This document shows, one piece after another, positions 37,636-44,935 of a DNA stretch of 64,000 nucleotides; position 1 is the stretch's first letter; each line of letters opens with the position of its first letter. Location: assembly GCF_004366035.1 (NCBI RefSeq), contig NZ_SOEE01000002.1, positions 1 to 64,000 on the forward strand. Reading direction: 5' to 3'. Below the pieces are notes generated by a model. That model had not been told where the DNA came from, did no database searches, and saw nothing but the letters and a program-made list of their open reading frames with translations. The position numbers and the translations under genes were made by a program. This DNA is from Cytobacillus oceanisediminis (GTDB taxonomy: Bacteria > Bacillota > Bacilli > Bacillales > Cytobacillaceae).

Positions 37636-38577
37636 CTACTGGGTCAAGCCTTCTTTAATGGTTTTAATATTCCATTCCATCATCGAGATGTACGTATCGC
37701 CATCCTCACCCGGCTTTGCCAGAGAGTCTGTAAACACTTTTCCCATGATCGGAACATTGGTTTCATCGGATACGGCTTCCATGCTTCTTGCGTCAATGCT
37801 GGTTTCCAGGAAAAGTCCTGTAATTTCTTTTTCATTAATAATATCCACAATTCTTGTAATTTGCTCTGGTGTTCCCTGGTTTTCCTGATTGATTTCCCAG
37901 ATGTATTCTGCCTGGAATCCGTAGGCTTCACTGAAATATTTAAAAGCACCTTCACTTGTAACGAGTACCCGTTCGTTTTCTGGAATTTCATTAAATTGTT
38001 CGACTGCCTCATCATGCAGCTCTTGCAGCTTTGCGATGTATTCTTCCGCGTTTTTTTCGTAAACCTCTTTGTTGTCTGGATCTGCCTTGATAAGTCCATC
38101 TCTGGCATTTTCCGCGTACTTGATTCCATTTCGGATGTCCAGCCAAGCATGGGGGTCTTCTTCACTTTCTTTGCCTTTTGTGGTTAAGTGCATCGCATCA
38201 ACGCCTTTGCTCATAAGGAAGACTGGCGCATCTTTACCGTCTTTTCCGGCAGTTTCCATCAATTTATTGAACCATGAGTTGCCGGCTTCCAGATTCAGGC
38301 CGTTGTAAAATACAGCATCTGCATCGGTTGTTTTTTGCACATCCTCAGGAAGCGGGTCATATTCGTGGGGATTGGAGCCAATAGGTGCTAAACTATGAAT
38401 CTCAACCAAATCCCCGCCTACATTTTTGACAATGTCATACACAATCGAATAGGTAGTCACAACCTGGATTTTCCCATCTTCATTGGATGATGTGCTGCTT
38501 GTTCCGCTGCTGCAGGCTGACAGGAATAACACAGAAAGAAGGGGTGCTGCTAATAAAAGAAAGCCTTTTTTAATCAT
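37636..38577 (-). CDS. Metal-binding lipoprotein of a Mn/Zn ABC importer
   Basis: 313 residues from the ATG after GGAGGTAAG. Lipobox LFLSAC near residue 19. Cluster A-I binding-protein fold with metal ligands visible as NPHEYDP (His), DPHAWLD (His), then Glu in LVTSEGAF and Asp in FTDSLAKPG. No His-rich loop like ZnuA, so Mn rather than Zn is favoured. Third gene of the operon. Confidence 0.88.
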   Translation of the reverse strand: MIKKGFLLLAAPLLSVLFLSACSSGTSSTSSNEDGKIQVVTTYSIVYDIVKNVGGDLVEIHSLAPIGSNPHEYDPLPEDVQKTTDADAVFYNGLNLEAGNSWFNKLMETAGKDGKDAPVFLMSKGVDAMHLTTKGKESEEDPHAWLDIRNGIKYAENARDGLIKADPDNKEVYEKNAEEYIAKLQELHDEAVEQFNEIPENERVLVTSEGAFKYFSEAYGFQAEYIWEINQENQGTPEQITRIVDIINEKEITGLFLETSIDARSMEAVSDETNVPIMGKVFTDSLAKPGEDGDTYISMMEWNIKTIKEGLTQ

Positions 38578-38612
38578 AGTCTTACCTCCAGAGAATTTTG
38601 ATTTTATTAAAA

Positions 38613-39470
38613 TTAAACTAATGAAGCTCTCTTCTTCTTTACTTTCAGCGTTTTCCATATTAACCCATGCTTAGGTGAGAATAAGAAAACGAGAATAAAA
38701 ATAGCAGTGGATGATATAACTATCGTTGCTCCTGAAGCTAAGTTGTAGGTAAAGCTAAAGTAAAGTCCCACGATGGATGAAATCACACCAATGCCAGACG
38801 CAAGGAAAATCATCATCCACAGCCGCTCGGTTAACAGATAAGCTGCCGCTGCAGGGGTTATCAGCATGGCAACAACAAGGACAATCCCAACTGTCTGGAG
38901 AGATGCAACGGTTACCATCGTCAAGAGAGTCATTAGGAAATAATGAATGAAACGCACTGGCAGTCCGTAAGCTGCTCCCATCGTTTCGTCAAACGAGGTG
39001 ACCAATAATTCTTTGTAAAAGAGGTATACAGCTGCCAATACAATCAGGCTGATGCCCAGTGTGATCCACATGTCTGATAATCTTACAGCCAGTACATTAC
39101 CAAATAATATATGGTATAGATCTGTACTGCTTTTAAGCATGGTAATAATAATGATTCCTGAAGCAAATGCCGCTGTAAACATAATTCCAATTGAGGTATC
39201 ATGCTTTATCCGGCTGTTTTGGGATACAAAACCAATGGCGATAGCTGTAGTTACTCCGCTTATGACTGCGCCAAAGAAGAAGTTGACTCCCAGCATATAT
39301 GAAATAGCGACGCCTGGAAGGACGGCATGTGATATGGCATCTCCCATGAGAGCCATTCCTCTGAGGATGATAAAGCACCCAATGACTCCGCAGATAATTC
39401 CTACCATAACCGAGGTTAATAACGCTTTTTGCAGGAAACCATATTGCATGACCGCTTCAATAAAAGCCAT
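38613..39470 (-). CDS. Mn/Zn-type ABC transporter permease
   Basis: 285 residues, about eight or nine helices, ABC-3 family. Features GCFIILRGMALMGDAISHAVLPGVAI near the N-terminus and a GAAYGLP coupling region. Its ATG overlaps the ATPase stop (TAATG), indicating translational coupling. Confidence 0.92.
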   Translation of the reverse strand: MAFIEAVMQYGFLQKALLTSVMVGIICGVIGCFIILRGMALMGDAISHAVLPGVAISYMLGVNFFFGAVISGVTTAIAIGFVSQNSRIKHDTSIGIMFTAAFASGIIIITMLKSSTDLYHILFGNVLAVRLSDMWITLGISLIVLAAVYLFYKELLVTSFDETMGAAYGLPVRFIHYFLMTLLTMVTVASLQTVGIVLVVAMLITPAAAAYLLTERLWMMIFLASGIGVISSIVGLYFSFTYNLASGATIVISSTAIFILVFLFSPKHGLIWKTLKVKKKRASLV

Positions 39471-40219
39471 TATAGCGACACCCCAATCTCATTCATAAAA
39501 GCAAATTGCCCCTTGTATGCTTTTGCAATAACTTCAGGTTTAAACACTTCTTCAACCGTCCCATAACTGATCAATTCCTTATTTAGCAGAATTAACTGAT
39601 TGAAATAATCATTTGCTTTACTTAAATCATGGTGTACCACAATAACGGTTTTTCCTTGTCTGCAGAGCTCCTTCAAAATTTGCACTATGGTTTCCTCACT
39701 GGATACATCAACTCCAACAAAGGGCTCATCCAGAAAGAACAAATCCGCTTTTTGAGCAAGTGCCCGCGCGAGAAAAACTCTCTGCTGCTGGCCGCCTGAC
39801 AGTTCCCCAATCTGCCTTTTGCTGAACTCCTGCATGCCAACTCGCTGAAGACATTCCATGGCCCATTCTTTATCCTTTTTCTTTGGACGGCGGAACAGTT
39901 TTAAATGGGGGTAGGTCCCAATAAGAACCGCATCAAGTACAGTGATTGGGAAATCCCAGTCAATGTCATTCCGCTGGGGCACATAGGCGATACTCTTGCG
40001 CACTTCTGCAATGGGTTTCCCCATCACTCTTACAGCACCTTTATCCTTTGGTATAAGATTTAACATCGCTTTTAAAAAAGTCGATTTGCCTGCGCCGTTC
40101 GGTCCGATAATTCCTACCAGATTACCAGTATTAACAGAAAGGCTAACTCCTGTCACCGCTTCATTTCCAAAATAGGAAACATGCAAATCCTCTATGCTTA
40201 TTGCTGGATCCTTCATCAT
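39470..40219 (-). CDS. Mn/Zn-type ABC transporter ATP-binding protein
   Basis: 249 residues. Walker A GPNGAGKST near residue 37, signature ELSGGQQQR, Walker B LFFLDEPFVGVD, H-loop VVHHDL. First gene of the operon; GGGGGC ribosome site. Energises import of the metal delivered by the lipoprotein encoded downstream. Confidence 0.94.
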   Translation of the reverse strand: MMKDPAISIEDLHVSYFGNEAVTGVSLSVNTGNLVGIIGPNGAGKSTFLKAMLNLIPKDKGAVRVMGKPIAEVRKSIAYVPQRNDIDWDFPITVLDAVLIGTYPHLKLFRRPKKKDKEWAMECLQRVGMQEFSKRQIGELSGGQQQRVFLARALAQKADLFFLDEPFVGVDVSSEETIVQILKELCRQGKTVIVVHHDLSKANDYFNQLILLNKELISYGTVEEVFKPEVIAKAYKGQFAFMNEIGVSL

Positions 40220-40560
40220 TTTAGCCCCCTTTATTTTCCAAATTTAAATTAATTCAAATTAATTGTTTTTGCACAATTATAAGTCACGCGGACAAGATTT
40301 ATGGATTCATTAAAAAGTTTTGCCTTAATGCAAATTATATGCAATTACTAAACAATGTCAACACAAAATAATTATTTTTACAGAAAGTTTAATCTTGGCA
40401 TTAAAATAGGGGAATTATGAAAACAGGCTCTGGCAATCAATTTGTTTAATGGTAAAATTAGGGGTGTTATACTATCTTTATCAGTTAATAGATTGTAATT
40501 TTGTAAATATATGAAACTTTTTACCCTTTTTGATCGTTTAAATAGTATAAGGCGGGATAT
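40220..40560. other. Divergent intergenic region
   Basis: Between the metal-uptake operon and the PlsY cluster. Holds the inverted repeat at 40247-40264 and, by position, promoters for both units. No gene is seen. Confidence 0.5.
40247..40264. promoter_or_regulatory. 18-bp perfect inverted repeat, candidate metalloregulator operator
   Basis: AATTAATT-CA-AATTAATT lies 28 bases before the start of the ATPase gene. It has the size and symmetry of DtxR/MntR-family operators but not the B. subtilis MntR sequence, which agrees with the altered regulator encoded in the operon. Confidence 0.5.
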
Positions 40561-41145
40561 GTGCTTATGATCGATGATGTGTGGACTGCCCTGATGGTTA
40601 TGATCTTTTCTTACACATTAGGGAGCGTAACCGGTGCTTATTATGTAGTTAAATACATAGCAAAAGAGGATATAAGAATAAAGGGGAGCGGGAATGTAGG
40701 GGCTACCAATGCAGGCAGAGCAATCGGCAAGAAGGGGTTCTTGCTGACAATAGCCATTGATGCAGTAAAGGCATGGGCAGCTTTATATGTTACTGGACTT
40801 ATATTTCAAGGTGATGGTTTATTCATTCTTAGTGCTTTTTGTGTACTTATTGGCCATTTGTTTCCCATTCAGCTGGGTTTTCATGGTGGAAAAGGAGTGG
40901 TTGTCTACTTGGCTTCTGCCTTGTTTTTGGAACCGGTGACAATAGCGATAATGGCTATCACGATGGGAATTGCCTATGCGGTTCTCCGGAAGTATACACT
41001 ATCAGGTTTTATCGCCATGGCTTCAATTCCCATAACAGCCTGGGTGATTGGTGATTCATTCATCATTTCTGCAGGCCTTCTGCTGCTGCTTTTGATTGTT
41101 TTAATTTCCCATACCCATTTCATCATGCCTAAACATAGGAGGTAA
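40561..41145 (+). CDS. PlsY-family glycerol-3-phosphate acyltransferase paralogue
   Basis: 194 residues, GTG start (ATG 40567 is an alternative). Five to six helices with the three PlsY motifs: KGSGNVGATNAGR, GHLFPIQLGFHGGKGV and a third near LISHTHF. PlsY transfers acyl from acyl-phosphate to glycerol 3-phosphate. The linked GNAT-aminotransferase and LtaS-like genes are not the usual plsY setting, so this is likely a paralogue with a special lipid role. Three bases separate it from the next gene. Confidence 0.85.
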   Translation: MLMIDDVWTALMVMIFSYTLGSVTGAYYVVKYIAKEDIRIKGSGNVGATNAGRAIGKKGFLLTIAIDAVKAWAALYVTGLIFQGDGLFILSAFCVLIGHLFPIQLGFHGGKGVVVYLASALFLEPVTIAIMAITMGIAYAVLRKYTLSGFIAMASIPITAWVIGDSFIISAGLLLLLLIVLISHTHFIMPKHRR

Positions 41146-41148
41146 ACT

Positions 41149-42759
41149 GTGAATATAATCTGTAAAATCGCAACCGAACCTAATGAATTTGAACAGATTC
41201 ATCAGCTGAACTACCAGACATTTGTGGAAGAAATTCCTCAGCATAAGCAAAATGAAGATCAGCATTTAATTGATAAATTTCATAAAGAAAATACATATGT
41301 CATTGCCAAGTTTGGCGAGGAAGTTGCAGGAATGATCGCGATCCGTGCCAAAAGGCCATTTTCGCTTGATTATAAGCTTCCTAATCTCGAAGAATACTTG
41401 CCTGTAAAGGGAGAATTTTGTGAGGTCCGTTTGCTGTCAGTCAAAAAAGAGTTTCGCAGCACCCGTGTATTTTATCAGCTTTGTGAAAAGCTTGTAGAGC
41501 TTTGCCTCGAAAAAAATTATACGATGGCGCTGATTTCGGGCACGGTCAGACAGCTGAAATTGTATAAGCGGATGGGGTTTCTGCCTTTTGGCCCTCTGAC
41601 AGGTGAGGATGGAGCCCAGTTTCAGCCCATGTATTTAACAAAAGAGAATTTCGAACGTTCAACGAAAGCCTTTGAACGCTTAATGGCCAGAAATTCGGTA
41701 CCCGCCGATCAGCATTCATTTTTGCCGGGTCCTGTGCCCATTCATCCAAAAGTGAAAAGGGCTTTTTCAAAAGAAGCCGTATCTCATCGCAATCATGATT
41801 TTATCAGCGGTTTGCAAGACTTGCGTTCTCAATTATGCAAGATGACAGATGCCAAATATGCTGAAATTGTTGTTGGCACGGGAACGCTTTCCAATGATCT
41901 TGTGGCAGCACAGCTGAAAAACATCGAAGGGGATGGGCTGATCCTGGCCAATGGTGAATTTGGCTTTCGTCTCATTGATCATGCAAGAAGGTTTCAATTA
42001 TCTTTTCATACAATTGAAAGAGATTGGAATGAGCCTATTGCCCACGAGGAAATAGCTTGCATGCTGAAAGAAAACCCCTCTATAAAATGGGTGTGGACTG
42101 TGCATTGTGAAACTTCAACTGGGTATGTATTCGATATCAGAGGCATTCAGGAGCTATGCGAGGAGCATGGTGCCGAGCTGTGCGTGGATGCATGCAGCAC
42201 GGCCGGAATTTTGCCGTTGAATCTTAAGAATATTTATTTTGCATCGACCGTCAGCGGAAAGGGATTTGGTTCCTATCCGGGTCTGGCAATCGTATTCCAT
42301 CGTGACAAGATTAAAGGGAACAGTGCAGTTCCAAGATACTTGGACTTAAAGATGTACGAAGAAAACCAAAGCATTCCATACACCCATTCTTCCAATCTGG
42401 TCAGCGCATTAAAAGAGAGTATAAAGCTGATAGATTATGAAAAATTAAATCTTTTGGCTGGAAAAGCAAGGATGAGGCTGAAGGACAGCGGATTTTCCGT
42501 TCTAGGGGACGAAGATTATTCCCCTGGCATCCTGACTATCAGTTTGCCGCAGAGCATTTCCAGCAGGGAATTTGGCGATGCATGCAAACAGAAAGGAATT
42601 CTTTTAAGCTATGAAAGCGGGTACCTCCTTGAAAGAAATTGGGTTCAGGTGGCTCTAATGGGGGCACAGGAAGAGCAGAAGGTCATGGCATCCCTCGAAA
42701 TGATGGCAGGTATTTTAGAAAAACAATATGAAAAGCGGTATGATTATGAAGTTATTTAA
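41149..42759 (+). CDS. GNAT (acyl-amino-acid-synthase-like) fused to class V aminotransferase
   Basis: 536 residues, GTG after AGGAGGT. Residues about 1-165 form a GNAT domain that recalls FeeM/autoinducer-synthase-like N-acyl transferases (AGMIAIRAKRPFSLDY, FCEVRLLSVKKEFRSTRVFYQL, LYKRMGFLPFGP). Residues about 185-525 form a PLP-dependent class V aminotransferase of the serine-glyoxylate/alanine-glyoxylate type (FLPGPVPIHPKV, HCETSTGYVFDI, DACSTAG; PLP Lys371 in SGKGFGSYPG). It overlaps the next gene. A product joining an amino group and an acyl chain is plausible but not shown. Confidence 0.8.
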   Translation: MNIICKIATEPNEFEQIHQLNYQTFVEEIPQHKQNEDQHLIDKFHKENTYVIAKFGEEVAGMIAIRAKRPFSLDYKLPNLEEYLPVKGEFCEVRLLSVKKEFRSTRVFYQLCEKLVELCLEKNYTMALISGTVRQLKLYKRMGFLPFGPLTGEDGAQFQPMYLTKENFERSTKAFERLMARNSVPADQHSFLPGPVPIHPKVKRAFSKEAVSHRNHDFISGLQDLRSQLCKMTDAKYAEIVVGTGTLSNDLVAAQLKNIEGDGLILANGEFGFRLIDHARRFQLSFHTIERDWNEPIAHEEIACMLKENPSIKWVWTVHCETSTGYVFDIRGIQELCEEHGAELCVDACSTAGILPLNLKNIYFASTVSGKGFGSYPGLAIVFHRDKIKGNSAVPRYLDLKMYEENQSIPYTHSSNLVSALKESIKLIDYEKLNLLAGKARMRLKDSGFSVLGDEDYSPGILTISLPQSISSREFGDACKQKGILLSYESGYLLERNWVQVALMGAQEEQKVMASLEMMAGILEKQYEKRYDYEVI

Positions 42760-44575
42760 AAGGCTTTCACCCATTTGGTTTGCCGTCCTTTTAATCTGGA
42801 TTAAAACGGTCATTGTATCCTTTATCGGATTTAATCTGCATCCGGAGAACTGGACTGATATTTTATTTATGATTTTAAGCCCGATCGGGGCCATAATGGT
42901 CATTCTTGGAGTTAATATTTATTTTAAGCGAAAAGTGAAACCGGCAGCCATTTTTATAACAATGGTTATTTTGACGGGCATTCTTTTTGGGGATTTGCTT
43001 TATTATCGTTTTTATACTGATTTTGTAACCGTTCCGATCCTTTTTCAGTTTAAAAATGTCGGAGGGATTGGACCGAGTACACTTGAATTGATTAGCCCGT
43101 GGGATCTTCTGTTATTTGCTGATCTGGCCGTTTTTTGGCTTTTCTATATAAAAAGAAAGTCAGTACATGAACAAATCACTGCTAAGTCAAAAAGAGTATA
43201 CACGGCTGTCAGTGTGTTATTTATATTCATGACCATCATTCTCGGCATGGTGAAAGTGCCTCATTTATTTTCGGAATCCTATAATCGCCAGCAGCTTGTT
43301 AAGCATATAGGTTTGTATCAGTATCATCTCTATGATATTGGCATCGCCGCATCATACCCGCTCAATCGCGCTTTTGCCAGTCCATCTGATGCAGAAGCCT
43401 CAGCGGAGTATGTCCAATCCCAAGAAGATAAGCCATCAGATTATTTTGGTGCGGCAAAAGGAATGAATGTCGTTCTGATTAGTATGGAGTCCACACAGAA
43501 TTTTGTTATCAATCAGAAGGTGAATGGCCAGGAAATAACCCCATTCCTTAATTCACTGATTGAAGACAGCTTTTATTTCAGCCAGGTATATGATCAGACA
43601 GCACAGGGGAAAACGTCTGACTCGGAATTCATGATCGATACAGGCCTTTATCCATTATCCAGCGGATCTGCGTTTGTCAGAAAAACGGAGAATGCTTATC
43701 GAAGTCTGCCGCATATTCTATCTGATGAGAAGTATTACTCAGCTGTTTTCCATGGGAATGACGCTTCGTTCTGGAATCGGGAGGCCATGTATGATTCTCT
43801 GGGGTATAATCGTTATTTTTCTAAAGCCGATTATTTGGTCACTGAAGAAAACTCAGTGAACTACGGCATTAAGGATATCCCATTCTTCCAGCAGTCCATT
43901 CAGCATCTGGAGAAACTGCAAAAGCCTTTCTATGCCAGATTTATTACATTGACAAACCATTTCCCATTCTTGCTGGAGGAGGAAGATCAGTTCATTCCTG
44001 AGTCCAGCACGAGTGAAATGGTCGTCAACCGCTATGTGACAACCGTTAGATATCAGGATGAAGCCATTAAAACATTCTTCCAGGATTTAAAATCAAGCGG
44101 ACTCTATGAAAATACGATGTTTGTATTGTACGGCGACCATTATGGCATCTCGGACAAATACGAACATGGCGTTCTGGAGCTGCTGGGACAGGAAGATACC
44201 ATAGTTAATCGAATGCAGCTGCAGAGTGTGCCGCTGATTATTCATGTGCCAGGTGTGGAAGGCAAAACGTTTTCGAACATTGGCGGGGAAATTGATATCA
44301 GGGCAACAATCCTACATCTGCTCGGCATTAGTGCTGAGGATAACTTCAGCTTCGGGCATAACCTTTTTACAAGGGATCCCAATCATCCAGTTATTTTCCG
44401 GGATGGAAGCTTTATGGCTAAAGACTATTTTTACAAATCCGGTAAATGCTTCAAAAGCGAATCGGAAGAAGAAACAGATATCGCCAGCTGTGAACCGTTA
44501 ATGGATATCTCAAGAAAAGAGCTAGGGCTATCTGATGACATTGTGCATGGAGATCTGATGAGGTTTATGGAATAA
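42746..44575 (+). CDS. LtaS-like sulfatase-fold membrane enzyme
   Basis: 609 residues from ATG 42746, inside the end of the previous gene. Five N-terminal helices (about 1-165), then an extracellular sulfatase domain with VVLISMEST metal site, catalytic Thr290 in QGKTSDSEF, LTNHFPF, GDHYG and VPLIIHVPG. The family includes lipoteichoic acid synthase and primase, which transfer glycerol phosphate from phosphatidylglycerol. C-terminal two Cys (GKC, ASC) may form a disulfide. Its coupling to a PlsY and a GNAT-aminotransferase suggests a modified glycerolipid or teichoic-acid-type product. Confidence 0.86.
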   Translation: MKLFKRLSPIWFAVLLIWIKTVIVSFIGFNLHPENWTDILFMILSPIGAIMVILGVNIYFKRKVKPAAIFITMVILTGILFGDLLYYRFYTDFVTVPILFQFKNVGGIGPSTLELISPWDLLLFADLAVFWLFYIKRKSVHEQITAKSKRVYTAVSVLFIFMTIILGMVKVPHLFSESYNRQQLVKHIGLYQYHLYDIGIAASYPLNRAFASPSDAEASAEYVQSQEDKPSDYFGAAKGMNVVLISMESTQNFVINQKVNGQEITPFLNSLIEDSFYFSQVYDQTAQGKTSDSEFMIDTGLYPLSSGSAFVRKTENAYRSLPHILSDEKYYSAVFHGNDASFWNREAMYDSLGYNRYFSKADYLVTEENSVNYGIKDIPFFQQSIQHLEKLQKPFYARFITLTNHFPFLLEEEDQFIPESSTSEMVVNRYVTTVRYQDEAIKTFFQDLKSSGLYENTMFVLYGDHYGISDKYEHGVLELLGQEDTIVNRMQLQSVPLIIHVPGVEGKTFSNIGGEIDIRATILHLLGISAEDNFSFGHNLFTRDPNHPVIFRDGSFMAKDYFYKSGKCFKSESEEETDIASCEPLMDISRKELGLSDDIVHGDLMRFME

Positions 44576-44595
44576 TTGTTGGAGGAAAAGCATGC

Positions 44596-44901
44596 ATGGA
44601 AGTGTTTGGGTTTATATTTTTGTGGGGAATCCCATTGCTGCTGCTTTGGAGCTTTATCCTAACGCTTGTCGAAGTTAAGAGAGCAGGCAGCGAAGGACAG
44701 TTCCTGGGCAGGACGCTGACATTTATTGGCGGAATTTATCATTATACCATTTCTTCATTTGCAGCATGGATTGGTTTGATTGCCATCGCATTTGGTATTG
44801 CAGCCCTGGTAGAGGGGGCCATTTTCGGAGCATTATTTTTTGGTTTATTTGGTGTTTTTATGGTTTATAACTTTTTTCCGAGATTGAATATGCCGGAATG
44901 A
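44596..44901 (+). CDS. Small membrane protein of the PlsY-LtaS cluster
   Basis: 101 residues, ATG 44596 with GGAGGA nine bases before. Three hydrophobic segments (about 5-25, 50-75, 78-95). No family recognised. Last gene of the cluster, followed by a terminator, so it is probably a subunit or accessory protein of the same pathway. Confidence 0.65.
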   Translation: MEVFGFIFLWGIPLLLLWSFILTLVEVKRAGSEGQFLGRTLTFIGGIYHYTISSFAAWIGLIAIAFGIAALVEGAIFGALFFGLFGVFMVYNFFPRLNMPE

Positions 44902-44906
44902 GATGG

Positions 44907-44935
44907 AGGTATGTCCTTTTGGGCATGCCTTTTAT
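44907..44935 (+). terminator. Terminator of the PlsY-LtaS cluster
   Basis: AGGTATG ... CATGCCTTTTATTTT hairpin with one wobble pair. Confidence 0.65.

What the first reader, a model, noticed from the sequence alone, without database searches (positions are those of the whole stretch)
40561..44901. Four-gene PlsY / GNAT-aminotransferase / LtaS-like cluster
Genes are packed with 3-base spacing, a 14-base overlap and one terminator. They join an acyltransferase of the PlsY type, a fusion of an N-acyl-type GNAT with a class V aminotransferase (Lys371 present), an LtaS-like phosphoglycerol transferase (Thr290 present) and a small membrane protein. Family knowledge gives the single activities. The combination suggests a pathway that makes an amino-acid- or amine-bearing glycerolipid, or a modified teichoic acid precursor. 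I do not recognise this as a described system.
Basis: partly seen in the sequence, partly recalled or inferred. Interest (0 to 1): 0.75.

Follow-up and report, generated by a model that had tools for sequence, protein, structure and literature searches.

The report
Stress-controlled bacterial aminolipid operon (predicted)
Many Bacillus relatives carry the same three genes side by side, in some lineages behind what looks like an envelope-stress switch, and the genes probably build an unusual membrane lipid in which one fatty acid is held by a nitrogen atom.

Summary
The cluster is real; coordinates, 3-base gap, 14-base overlap, Lys371 and Thr290 check out. The conserved unit is three genes, PlsY-like > GNAT-aminotransferase (GNAT-AT) > LtaS-like; the fourth gene is local. 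Of 103 non-redundant loci, 64 keep all three together while outer flanks change. In a 61-genome sample all 40 GNAT-AT genomes carry an extra, divergent PlsY, against 2 of 21 others. This PlsY lost Ser142 (contact to the 2-OH of glycerol-3-phosphate) in 83 of 83 non-redundant linked copies; housekeeping PlsY keeps it in 33 of 33. Three of its four phosphate-clamp residues stay in at least 82 of 83. The GNAT half resembles acyl-homoserine-lactone synthases and FeeM. The aminotransferase half is nearest PhnW, but Gln replaces the carboxylate-binding Arg in 105 of 105 readable sequences. An ECF-sigma-type promoter precedes PlsY in 35 of 82 loci, against 9 of 602 other ORFs. No PEP mutase reaches its cut-off in this genome. 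Best reading: an envelope-stress operon for an N-acyl, O-acyl aminolipid, perhaps from serinol phosphate (an amide analogue of phosphatidic acid), with LtaS adding phosphoglycerol. No substrate has been shown. The open papers searched gave no description of the cluster.

The parts
40512..40537 (+). ECF-sigma-type promoter: TGAAAC (40512-40517), 17-base spacer, CGT (40535-40537), 23 bases before the PlsY start
   Evidence: Only site of this pattern (TGAAAC, 15-18 bases, CGT) on either strand of the 64-kb window; the pattern precedes PlsY in 35 of 82 loci vs 9 of 602 other ORFs
40561..41145 (+). PlsY-like acyl-phosphate-type acyltransferase with altered acceptor pocket (GTG start)
   Evidence: PF02660 116 bits; this copy: Ser35, Thr41, Arg45, His92, Lys104, His177 kept, Gly at 142, Phe at 180
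41149..41703 (+). GNAT domain, N-acyl (FeeM / AHL-synthase) type, residues 1-185 of GNAT-AT
   Evidence: PF21926 over cut-off; model pLDDT 91, best Foldseek match BjaI 5w8e E 1.2e-8, FeeM 2g0b E 1.2e-6
41704..42759 (+). Class V (PhnW-like) PLP aminotransferase domain, Lys371, Gln500 in place of the carboxylate Arg
   Evidence: PF00266; Foldseek 7e7g E 8.1e-25; K371 106 of 106, Q500 105 of 105 readable
42746..44575 (+). LtaS-like phosphoglycerol transferase
   Evidence: NF053595 648 bits, below its 970-bit cut-off; aligns with solved LtaS, Thr290 kept; 41, 38 and 30% identical to three other LtaS-like proteins of the genome
44596..44901 (+). Small membrane protein, local addition
   Evidence: No Pfam or NCBIfam match; seen in 10 of 120 other loci
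44905..44932 (+). Terminator-like stem-loop with T-run
   Evidence: 12 pairs; number of such sites in the region not above shuffles

Best explanation
A lipid-synthesis operon that, in part of its range, is switched on by an envelope-stress (ECF) sigma factor. Step 1 (inferred): the PhnW-like domain transaminates a small phosphorylated ketone without a carboxylate, most simply dihydroxyacetone phosphate, giving serinol phosphate. Step 2 (inferred from fold): the fused FeeM/AHL-synthase-type GNAT puts a fatty acyl chain on the new amine. Step 3 (inferred from residues): the PlsY-like enzyme puts a second acyl chain, probably from acyl-phosphate, on a hydroxyl of that phosphorylated N-acyl compound instead of on glycerol-3-phosphate. 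The product would be an N,O-diacyl aminolipid, in the simplest case an amide analogue of phosphatidic acid. Step 4 (where present, speculative): the LtaS-like enzyme adds glycerol phosphate from phosphatidylglycerol to this lipid or uses it as anchor. Shown by computation here: conserved linkage and co-occurrence, domain folds, residue changes, a promoter-like motif. Not shown: any substrate, product or expression. The confidence is for the general reading (N-plus-O-acylated aminolipid operon); serinol phosphate in particular about 0.3.
For: Linkage: 64 of 103 non-redundant loci hold all three genes together, with 27 upstream and 39 downstream flank families. A PlsY-like gene also lies directly upstream of GNAT-AT in both genomes of another class. 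Co-occurrence: 40 of 40 GNAT-AT genomes have an extra PlsY (110-145 bits) beside the housekeeping ones, also in 11 genomes where it lies about 30-102 kb away on the same contig. PlsY: Ser142, the 2-OH contact (PMC5700162), absent in 83 of 83 non-redundant linked copies, in 11 of 11 unlinked copies of GNAT-AT genomes and in 18 of 18 of a second set (15 new genomes); kept in 33 of 33 non-redundant and 15 of 15 more housekeeping copies. AT: Q500 stands where PhnW 7e7g has Arg, 105 of 105 readable; Arg347 of plant AGT1 binds the carboxylate (PMC6797613), taken here as the same position; SHR 212-214, of which H and R are 106 of 106, lines up, weakly, with E. coli SerC H41-R42. GNAT: BjaI, LasI and FeeM among the best 50 folds. 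PEP mutase over its cut-off in 1 of 61 genomes, not in this one. Precedents: RtxA makes serinol phosphate from DHAP (PMC3222319); Gemella N-acyl serinols (PMC10666787, PMC11271093). A TMEM164-family protein (one member profile-tested) is the next gene upstream of PlsY in 13 of the 64 trio loci. ECF-type promoter.
Against: No substrate was tested. The SHR motif also occurs in 2dr1, a putative serine aminotransferase. The amino donor needs a carboxylate site, and the usual Arg is gone. Asn180 of PlsY is variable rather than uniformly lost: Asn in 13 of 83 linked, 8 of 11 unlinked and 7 of 18 second-set copies. Thr41, which touches the acyl-phosphate carbonyl, is Arg in 41 and Lys in 2 of 83 linked copies; Arg45 is lost in 4 of 18 second-set copies and in the 10 extra copies of Planococcaceae-like genomes that have Arg41, so the extra PlsY may not share one donor or acceptor. 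LtaS is not adjacent in 26 of 103 loci, and 13 of 103 have neither neighbour. Two of 21 genomes without GNAT-AT (G063, G081) have a divergent extra PlsY that also lacks Ser142; G205 has GNAT-AT but only a 58.6-bit partial extra PlsY. The ECF-type site is absent in most loci of several lineages (35 of 82 have it; 3 of 21 GNAT-first loci, 0 of 13 unlinked PlsY). The Foldseek list for the GNAT mixes plain acetyltransferases with the N-acyl type. Genomes in the counts are related, so counts are not independent events.
Confidence: 0.5

Rival explanations
1. N-acyl amino-acid lipid: the AT domain makes or recycles an alpha-amino acid, the GNAT acylates it, PlsY O-acylates it, as in ornithine/glycine lipids.
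For: FeeM over Pfam cut-off; two-step N- then O-acylation is the known logic of bacterial aminolipids (PMC11631085, passages).
Against: The carboxylate-binding Arg of class V aminotransferases is Gln in 105 of 105 readable sequences; PlsY keeps phosphate-clamp residues Ser35 and Arg45 in 83 of 83 and Lys104 in 82 of 83 linked copies, which fits a phosphorylated acceptor better.
Confidence: 0.2
2. N-acylated 2-aminoethylphosphonate lipid: the AT is a true AEP transaminase working in the biosynthetic direction.
For: Nearest curated family is PhnW-AepZ, 137.5 bits; nearest fold 7e7g.
Against: 137.5 bits against a 360.8-bit cut-off; Gln in place of the PhnW Arg; PEP mutase over cut-off in 1 of 61 genomes, not this one, whose best match is 61 bits of 319.55. 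Uptake of AEP was not examined.
Confidence: 0.05
3. Lipoteichoic-acid modification: the unit makes a special lipid anchor or a second LTA, with LtaS as the main enzyme and the other genes supplying the anchor.
For: LtaS-like gene adjacent in 77 of 103 loci; catalytic Thr and surrounding motifs kept.
Against: PlsY and GNAT-AT also pair without adjacent LtaS (13 of 103; another class), so LtaS is not the core. This rival is compatible with the best explanation as its last step.
Confidence: 0.2
4. Spare phospholipid supply: the extra PlsY is just a backup glycerol-3-phosphate acyltransferase, next to an unrelated detoxifying acetyltransferase/aminotransferase.
For: PF02660 well over cut-off; Asn180 still present in part of the copies.
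Against: Ser142 absent in every linked copy examined; co-occurrence with GNAT-AT; a housekeeping-type PlsY present in every one of 61 genomes.
Confidence: 0.05

Closest known systems
Two-step bacterial aminolipid synthesis (GlsB/GlsA; OlsB/OlsA, recalled)
   Same: A GNAT-superfamily N-acyltransferase followed by an O-acyltransferase (PMC11631085, passages; GlsB/GlsA also in PMC10666787, passage)
   Different: Here the amine is probably made by a fused aminotransferase, the O-acyltransferase is of the PlsY type, not PlsC-like, and the hosts are Bacillota
Gemella N-acyl serinol synthases (hm-NAS)
   Same: N-acylation of an amino alcohol; reviews attribute N-acyl serinols to Gemella NAS genes (PMC11271093, PMC10666787, passages). 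That the Gemella enzyme also has an aminotransferase domain is recalled, not checked; the original paper is not held
   Different: No PlsY, LtaS or stress promoter known to me for Gemella; homology to the Gemella protein not tested
RtxA N-terminal domain (rhizobitoxine pathway)
   Same: Aminotransferase that turns DHAP into serinol phosphate (PMC3222319, passages)
   Different: Fused to a sulfhydrylase-like domain, makes a rhizobitoxine precursor, not a lipid; sequence not compared here
PntC-AEPT fusions
   Same: Class V AEP transaminase fused to a second enzyme that can use its product (PMC6697681, passages)
   Different: Partner is a nucleotidyltransferase; pathway needs PEP mutase
LtaS and its paralogues
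   Same: Sulfatase-fold phosphoglycerol transferase, catalytic Thr present
   Different: 41, 38 and 30% identical to three other LtaS-like proteins of the same genome and below the curated LtaS cut-off

Membership tests
N-acyl amino acid synthase (FeeM) / AHL-synthase-type GNAT | Family profile over the curated cut-off | tested here: met
   PF21926 34 bits, cut-off 27
N-acyl amino acid synthase (FeeM) / AHL-synthase-type GNAT | Fold nearest to long-chain N-acyltransferases | tested here: met
   BjaI 5w8e rank 1, LasI 1ro5 rank 15, FeeM 2g0b rank 26 in Foldseek; plain acetyltransferases are mixed among them from rank 4
N-acyl amino acid synthase (FeeM) / AHL-synthase-type GNAT | Transfers a long acyl chain to an amine | not testable with these tools
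   Needs enzyme assay
2-aminoethylphosphonate transaminase (PhnW/AepZ) | Score over NCBIfam cut-off | tested here: not met
   TIGR03301 137.5 bits, cut-off 360.8
2-aminoethylphosphonate transaminase (PhnW/AepZ) | Substrate-binding Arg near the C-terminus | tested here: not met
   Gln500 in 105 of 105 readable sequences; Arg in 7e7g; the role of this Arg in PhnW is recalled
Class V PLP aminotransferase fold | Fold and PLP lysine | tested here: met
   Foldseek 7e7g E 8.1e-25; K371 106 of 106
PlsY glycerol-3-phosphate acyltransferase | Pfam fold family | tested here: met
   PF02660 116 bits, cut-off 24.1
PlsY glycerol-3-phosphate acyltransferase | Curated PlsY equivalog cut-off | tested here: not met
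   TIGR00023 91.8 bits, cut-off 137.2
PlsY glycerol-3-phosphate acyltransferase | Glycerol-3-phosphate pocket (S35, R45, K104, N180, S142, H177) | tested here: not met
   83 non-redundant linked copies: S35 83, R45 83, K104 82, H177 83, S142 0, N180 13
LtaS lipoteichoic acid synthase | Curated LtaS cut-off | tested here: not met
   NF053595 648 bits, cut-off 970
LtaS lipoteichoic acid synthase | Sulfatase-fold domain with catalytic Thr | tested here: met
   PF00884 140 bits; aligned to 2w8d, 4uoo, 2w5q over the catalytic domain
N-acyl serinol synthase | Makes N-acyl serinol | not testable with these tools
   Needs heterologous expression and mass spectrometry; relation to the Gemella gene not tested

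The most novel reading that the evidence does not exclude
The operon makes a natural phospholipid whose second acyl chain is amide-linked: DHAP is transaminated to serinol phosphate, N-acylated by the fused GNAT, and O-acylated by a PlsY that has given up its contact to the 2-hydroxyl, giving an amide analogue of phosphatidic acid, made under envelope stress in the lineages with the ECF-type promoter. Such lipids would be expected to resist phospholipase A2.
Probability: 0.25. Interest if true: 0.88.

Novelty: new variant of a known kind. Interest (0 to 1): 0.66.

Why it matters
It predicts an uncharacterised lipid class in common soil and marine Bacillota, with its own acyltransferase and, in part of the range, its own stress switch. 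It gives an explicit, testable substrate prediction for an orphan aminotransferase-acyltransferase fusion, and shows a PlsY branch that seems to have left glycerol-3-phosphate. If the amide-phospholipid reading holds, a chemistry known to me only from synthetic phospholipase inhibitors (recalled) would be natural.

Tried and rejected
Aminoethylphosphonate product: rejected as a main reading after the PEP mutase scan and the Arg-to-Gln change. Backup PlsY: rejected after the residue comparison. Four-gene unit: rejected, small protein in 10 of 120 other loci. Uniform loss of Asn180: I first read it so; the recount shows a variable position, and I have weakened the claim. G063 and G081, without full-length GNAT-AT, have a divergent extra PlsY; both lack Ser142 and have further changes (G063 Leu at 104; G081 Asp at 35, Ala at 41, Lys at 45); both are counted against strict co-occurrence. 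Universal ECF control: rejected; strict pattern in 35 of 82 PlsY loci, 3 of 21 GNAT-first loci, 0 of 13 unlinked PlsY. Three of the 35 (L134, L136, L141) lie 7 bases from the start codon and may be chance. Register of PlsY position 142: MAFFT places Gly there in most; shifted by one it would be Phe/Leu; Ser is absent either way. A search for the role of the PhnW Arg in PMC12366243 found no passage. Literature: the searches for the gene combination and for N-acyl serinol with an aminotransferase gave no description of this cluster in their listings; closed journals were not covered. Gemella homologue: not identified; the class scans are unnamed.

Rows dropped before counts: one search reduced 120 GNAT-AT proteins (the window's among them) to 106 at 97% identity; one search used 103 of 105 non-redundant loci (two lacked flank; the window itself is not among them). 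PlsY: one search used 95 linked, 13 unlinked and 37 housekeeping rows with repeats; one search reduced them to 83, 13 and 33. Of the 18 second-set rows, three (L152, L153, L155) repeat genomes of the first set. In one search two extra copies of a third type (L247, L258) and the partial L257 also lack Ser142 and are not in any count. The 602 control ORFs are mechanical ORFs over 450 bases, not annotated genes.
Full report
What is there. Lys371 and Thr290 are correct. Pfam gives G3P_acyltransf for gene 1, FeeM-type GNAT plus class V aminotransferase in gene 2, Sulfatase (LtaS) for gene 3 and nothing for gene 4. None of the three main proteins reaches the curated cut-off of its nearest characterised enzyme: PlsY 91.8 of 137.2 bits, PhnW-AepZ 137.5 of 360.8, LtaS 648 of 970. 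All three are thus off-centre members of their superfamilies.

Conservation. I searched the neighbourhoods of 120 loci with profiles made from the linked genes. After removing near-identical copies, 103 loci had enough flank: PlsY and LtaS both adjacent in 64, PlsY only in 13, LtaS only in 13, neither in 13. Beyond the 64 trios there are 27 different upstream and 39 different downstream families, so the trio is not just a piece of a long conserved region. Genera with GNAT-AT include Cytobacillus, Rossellomorea, Peribacillus, Virgibacillus, Oceanobacillus, Halobacillus, Planococcus, Shouchella and Pseudalkalibacillus. Of 398 Bacilli genomes, 49 have one near-full-length match to the fusion in the listed matches, and two more have pieces of it. 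Of 398 genomes drawn from the phylum, two outside the class have it, both with the PlsY-like gene directly upstream, though in one of them (L277) that gene is split into two frames. The small membrane protein was found in 10 of 120 loci besides the window.

Co-occurrence. In 61 genomes every genome has at least one PlsY of housekeeping score (the best copy at 177 bits or more). All 40 with GNAT-AT (one of them, G035, with a broken copy) have a further PlsY at 110-145 bits. In 11 of these it is not next to GNAT-AT but about 30-102 kb away on the same contig. Of 21 genomes without full-length GNAT-AT, two (G063, 129 bits; G081, 110 bits) have a divergent extra PlsY, both with further residue changes. 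Thirteen further GNAT-AT genomes without an adjacent PlsY were scanned: 12 have extra copies of 117-137 bits, and G205 has only a 58.6-bit partial match; G007, a same-genus genome without GNAT-AT, has only two copies of housekeeping score.

PlsY residues. The A. aeolicus structure (PMC5700162, abstract and passages) assigns Ser35, Arg45, Lys104, Asn180 to the glycerol-3-phosphate clamp, Ser142 and His177 to its 2-hydroxyl, and Thr41, His92 and the Lys104-Ala107 backbone to acyl-phosphate. In 83 non-redundant linked copies (95 rows) Ser35 is kept in 83, Arg45 in 83, Lys104 in 82, His92 in 83, His177 in 83, Ser142 in none (Gly 74, Met 5, Thr 2, Ala 2), Asn180 in 13, and Thr41 in 40 (Arg 41, Lys 2). 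In 33 non-redundant housekeeping copies Ser142, Asn180 and Thr41 are kept in 33. The 11 unlinked copies of GNAT-AT genomes have Gly142 and Arg41 in 11 and Asn180 in 8. A second set gives Ser142 absent in 18 of 18 GNAT-adjacent copies (three of them repeats) and present in 15 of 15 housekeeping copies; there Asn180 is kept in 7 and Arg45 lost in 4 of the 18. In ten Planococcaceae-like unlinked copies and one more (L259) Arg45 is replaced by Ala or Val while position 41 is Arg, as if the positive charge had moved. So the loss of Ser142 is the uniform mark; Asn180 is variable. I read this as an enzyme that still handles a phosphorylated acceptor and an activated acyl chain but no longer glycerol-3-phosphate. 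This is inference.

GNAT half. A separate model (pLDDT 91.3, pTM 0.85) is nearest to acyl-homoserine-lactone synthases (BjaI, E 1.2e-8), with LasI and FeeM among the first 50, mixed with ordinary acetyltransferases. By sequence its best solved relative is again BjaI, weakly (E 0.0078; FeeM not listed). A long-chain donor is likely; whether it is ACP- or CoA-bound is open.

Aminotransferase half. The full model (pLDDT 89.4, pTM 0.67) matches PhnW-type structures best. The PLP lysine is invariant (106 of 106). The Arg that in plant AGT1 binds the substrate carboxylate, and that the authors call found in all aminotransferases (PMC6797613, passages), corresponds to the Arg of PhnW 7e7g that aligns with Gln500; the match between AGT1 and PhnW positions is from general knowledge. 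Gln500 stands in 105 of 105 readable members. An invariant Ser-His-Arg (212-214) lines up, with a weak local score, with E. coli SerC Ser40-His41-Arg42, where His41 and Arg42 reach the far end of the substrate from the other subunit. That these bind the phosphate of phosphoserine is recalled. A phosphorylated ketone without carboxylate, such as dihydroxyacetone phosphate, would fit both changes. RtxA is a known precedent for that reaction (PMC3222319, passages). The missing carboxylate Arg also leaves the amino donor unexplained.

LtaS and neighbours. The LtaS-like protein keeps the catalytic Thr and aligns along the whole catalytic domain with solved LtaS. It is 41, 38 and 30% identical to three other LtaS-like proteins of the genome. 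In Rossellomorea and a few others a protein of family 7 is the next gene upstream of PlsY (13 of 64 trio loci); the one member tested is TMEM164 by Pfam, 172 bits. Human TMEM164 is a phospholipid transacylase (PMC11592020, passages). A beta-propeller protein sits in the loci of 11 unlinked PlsY genes and beside GNAT-AT in one (BLAST; PF09826 confirmed for three members). PF09826 occurs in 35 of 40 genomes with GNAT-AT and 4 of 21 without.

Promoter. TGAAAC, a 15-18 base spacer and CGT precede PlsY in 35 of 82 loci, against 9 of 602 other ORFs in the same loci and 0 of 37 housekeeping PlsY rows. In 83 upstream stretches, 35 have it against a mean of 0.16 and a maximum of 2 in 100 dinucleotide shuffles; 21 different spacers occur, so the two boxes persist while the spacer changes. 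The window has one such site on both strands, at 40512-40537. That this is the ECF-sigma (W/M/X-like) consensus is from general knowledge of Bacillus subtilis. It is lineage-limited: of the 35, 32 have Thr41-type PlsY, and the three with Arg41 (L134, L136, L141) are the doubtful ones.

Judgement. The linkage, the residue changes and the promoter motif are computed results. The chemistry is inference. I rate the operon a new variant of the known two-step aminolipid logic (PMC11631085, passages), with a fused amine-making domain, a PlsY-type second acyltransferase and, in part of the range, stress control. The amide-phospholipid reading is the boldest that the evidence allows.

Noticed in passing
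L167-L169, L171, L173, L175, L176, upstream of GNAT-AT (e.g. L175:369-1484): In the Planococcaceae-like family f46 an FAD-dependent oxidoreductase (PF01266 DAO, 203 bits in L175, the one tested; others by eye) lies just upstream of GNAT-AT in place of PlsY; it could supply a ketone to the aminotransferase.
   Followed up: partly
L088:4503-5327 and family 7 (16 of 120 loci): Bacterial TMEM164-family protein directly upstream of the PlsY-like gene in Rossellomorea-type genomes.
   Followed up: partly
L211-L221, L050:1718-3907; own genome G000:C2:315102-316685: Beta-propeller plus Big_5 protein recurs near the unlinked PlsY and once beside GNAT-AT; function unknown.
   Followed up: partly
L277:7627-8076, L278:7628-8080: The gene after GNAT-AT in two genomes of another class looks like the mechanosensitive channel MscL (recognised by eye, not profile-tested).
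   Followed up: no
L038:3681-5290; L277:5408-5989: Broken copies: GNAT-AT in two reading frames in G035, PlsY-like in two frames in G855. Intact copies exist in relatives.
   Followed up: no
L148, L150: GNAT-AT at 47% identity on contigs labelled Candidatus Sumerlaeaceae/Sumerlaeota (MAGs), without PlsY or LtaS detected on the short stretches held.
   Followed up: partly
L079, L073, L131: Records titled Pseudomonas sp. ISL-84, Paenibacillus sp. FSL R5-0490 and Roseburia sp. 1XD42-34 carry Bacillaceae-like trios; the labels are probably wrong.
   Followed up: no
window 37636-40219 (-): Divergent operon upstream that looks like a TroA/ZnuA-type metal ABC transporter (by eye); two of its genes (families 4 and 5) stay near the trio in 19 of 120 loci each, mostly close relatives.
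   Followed up: no
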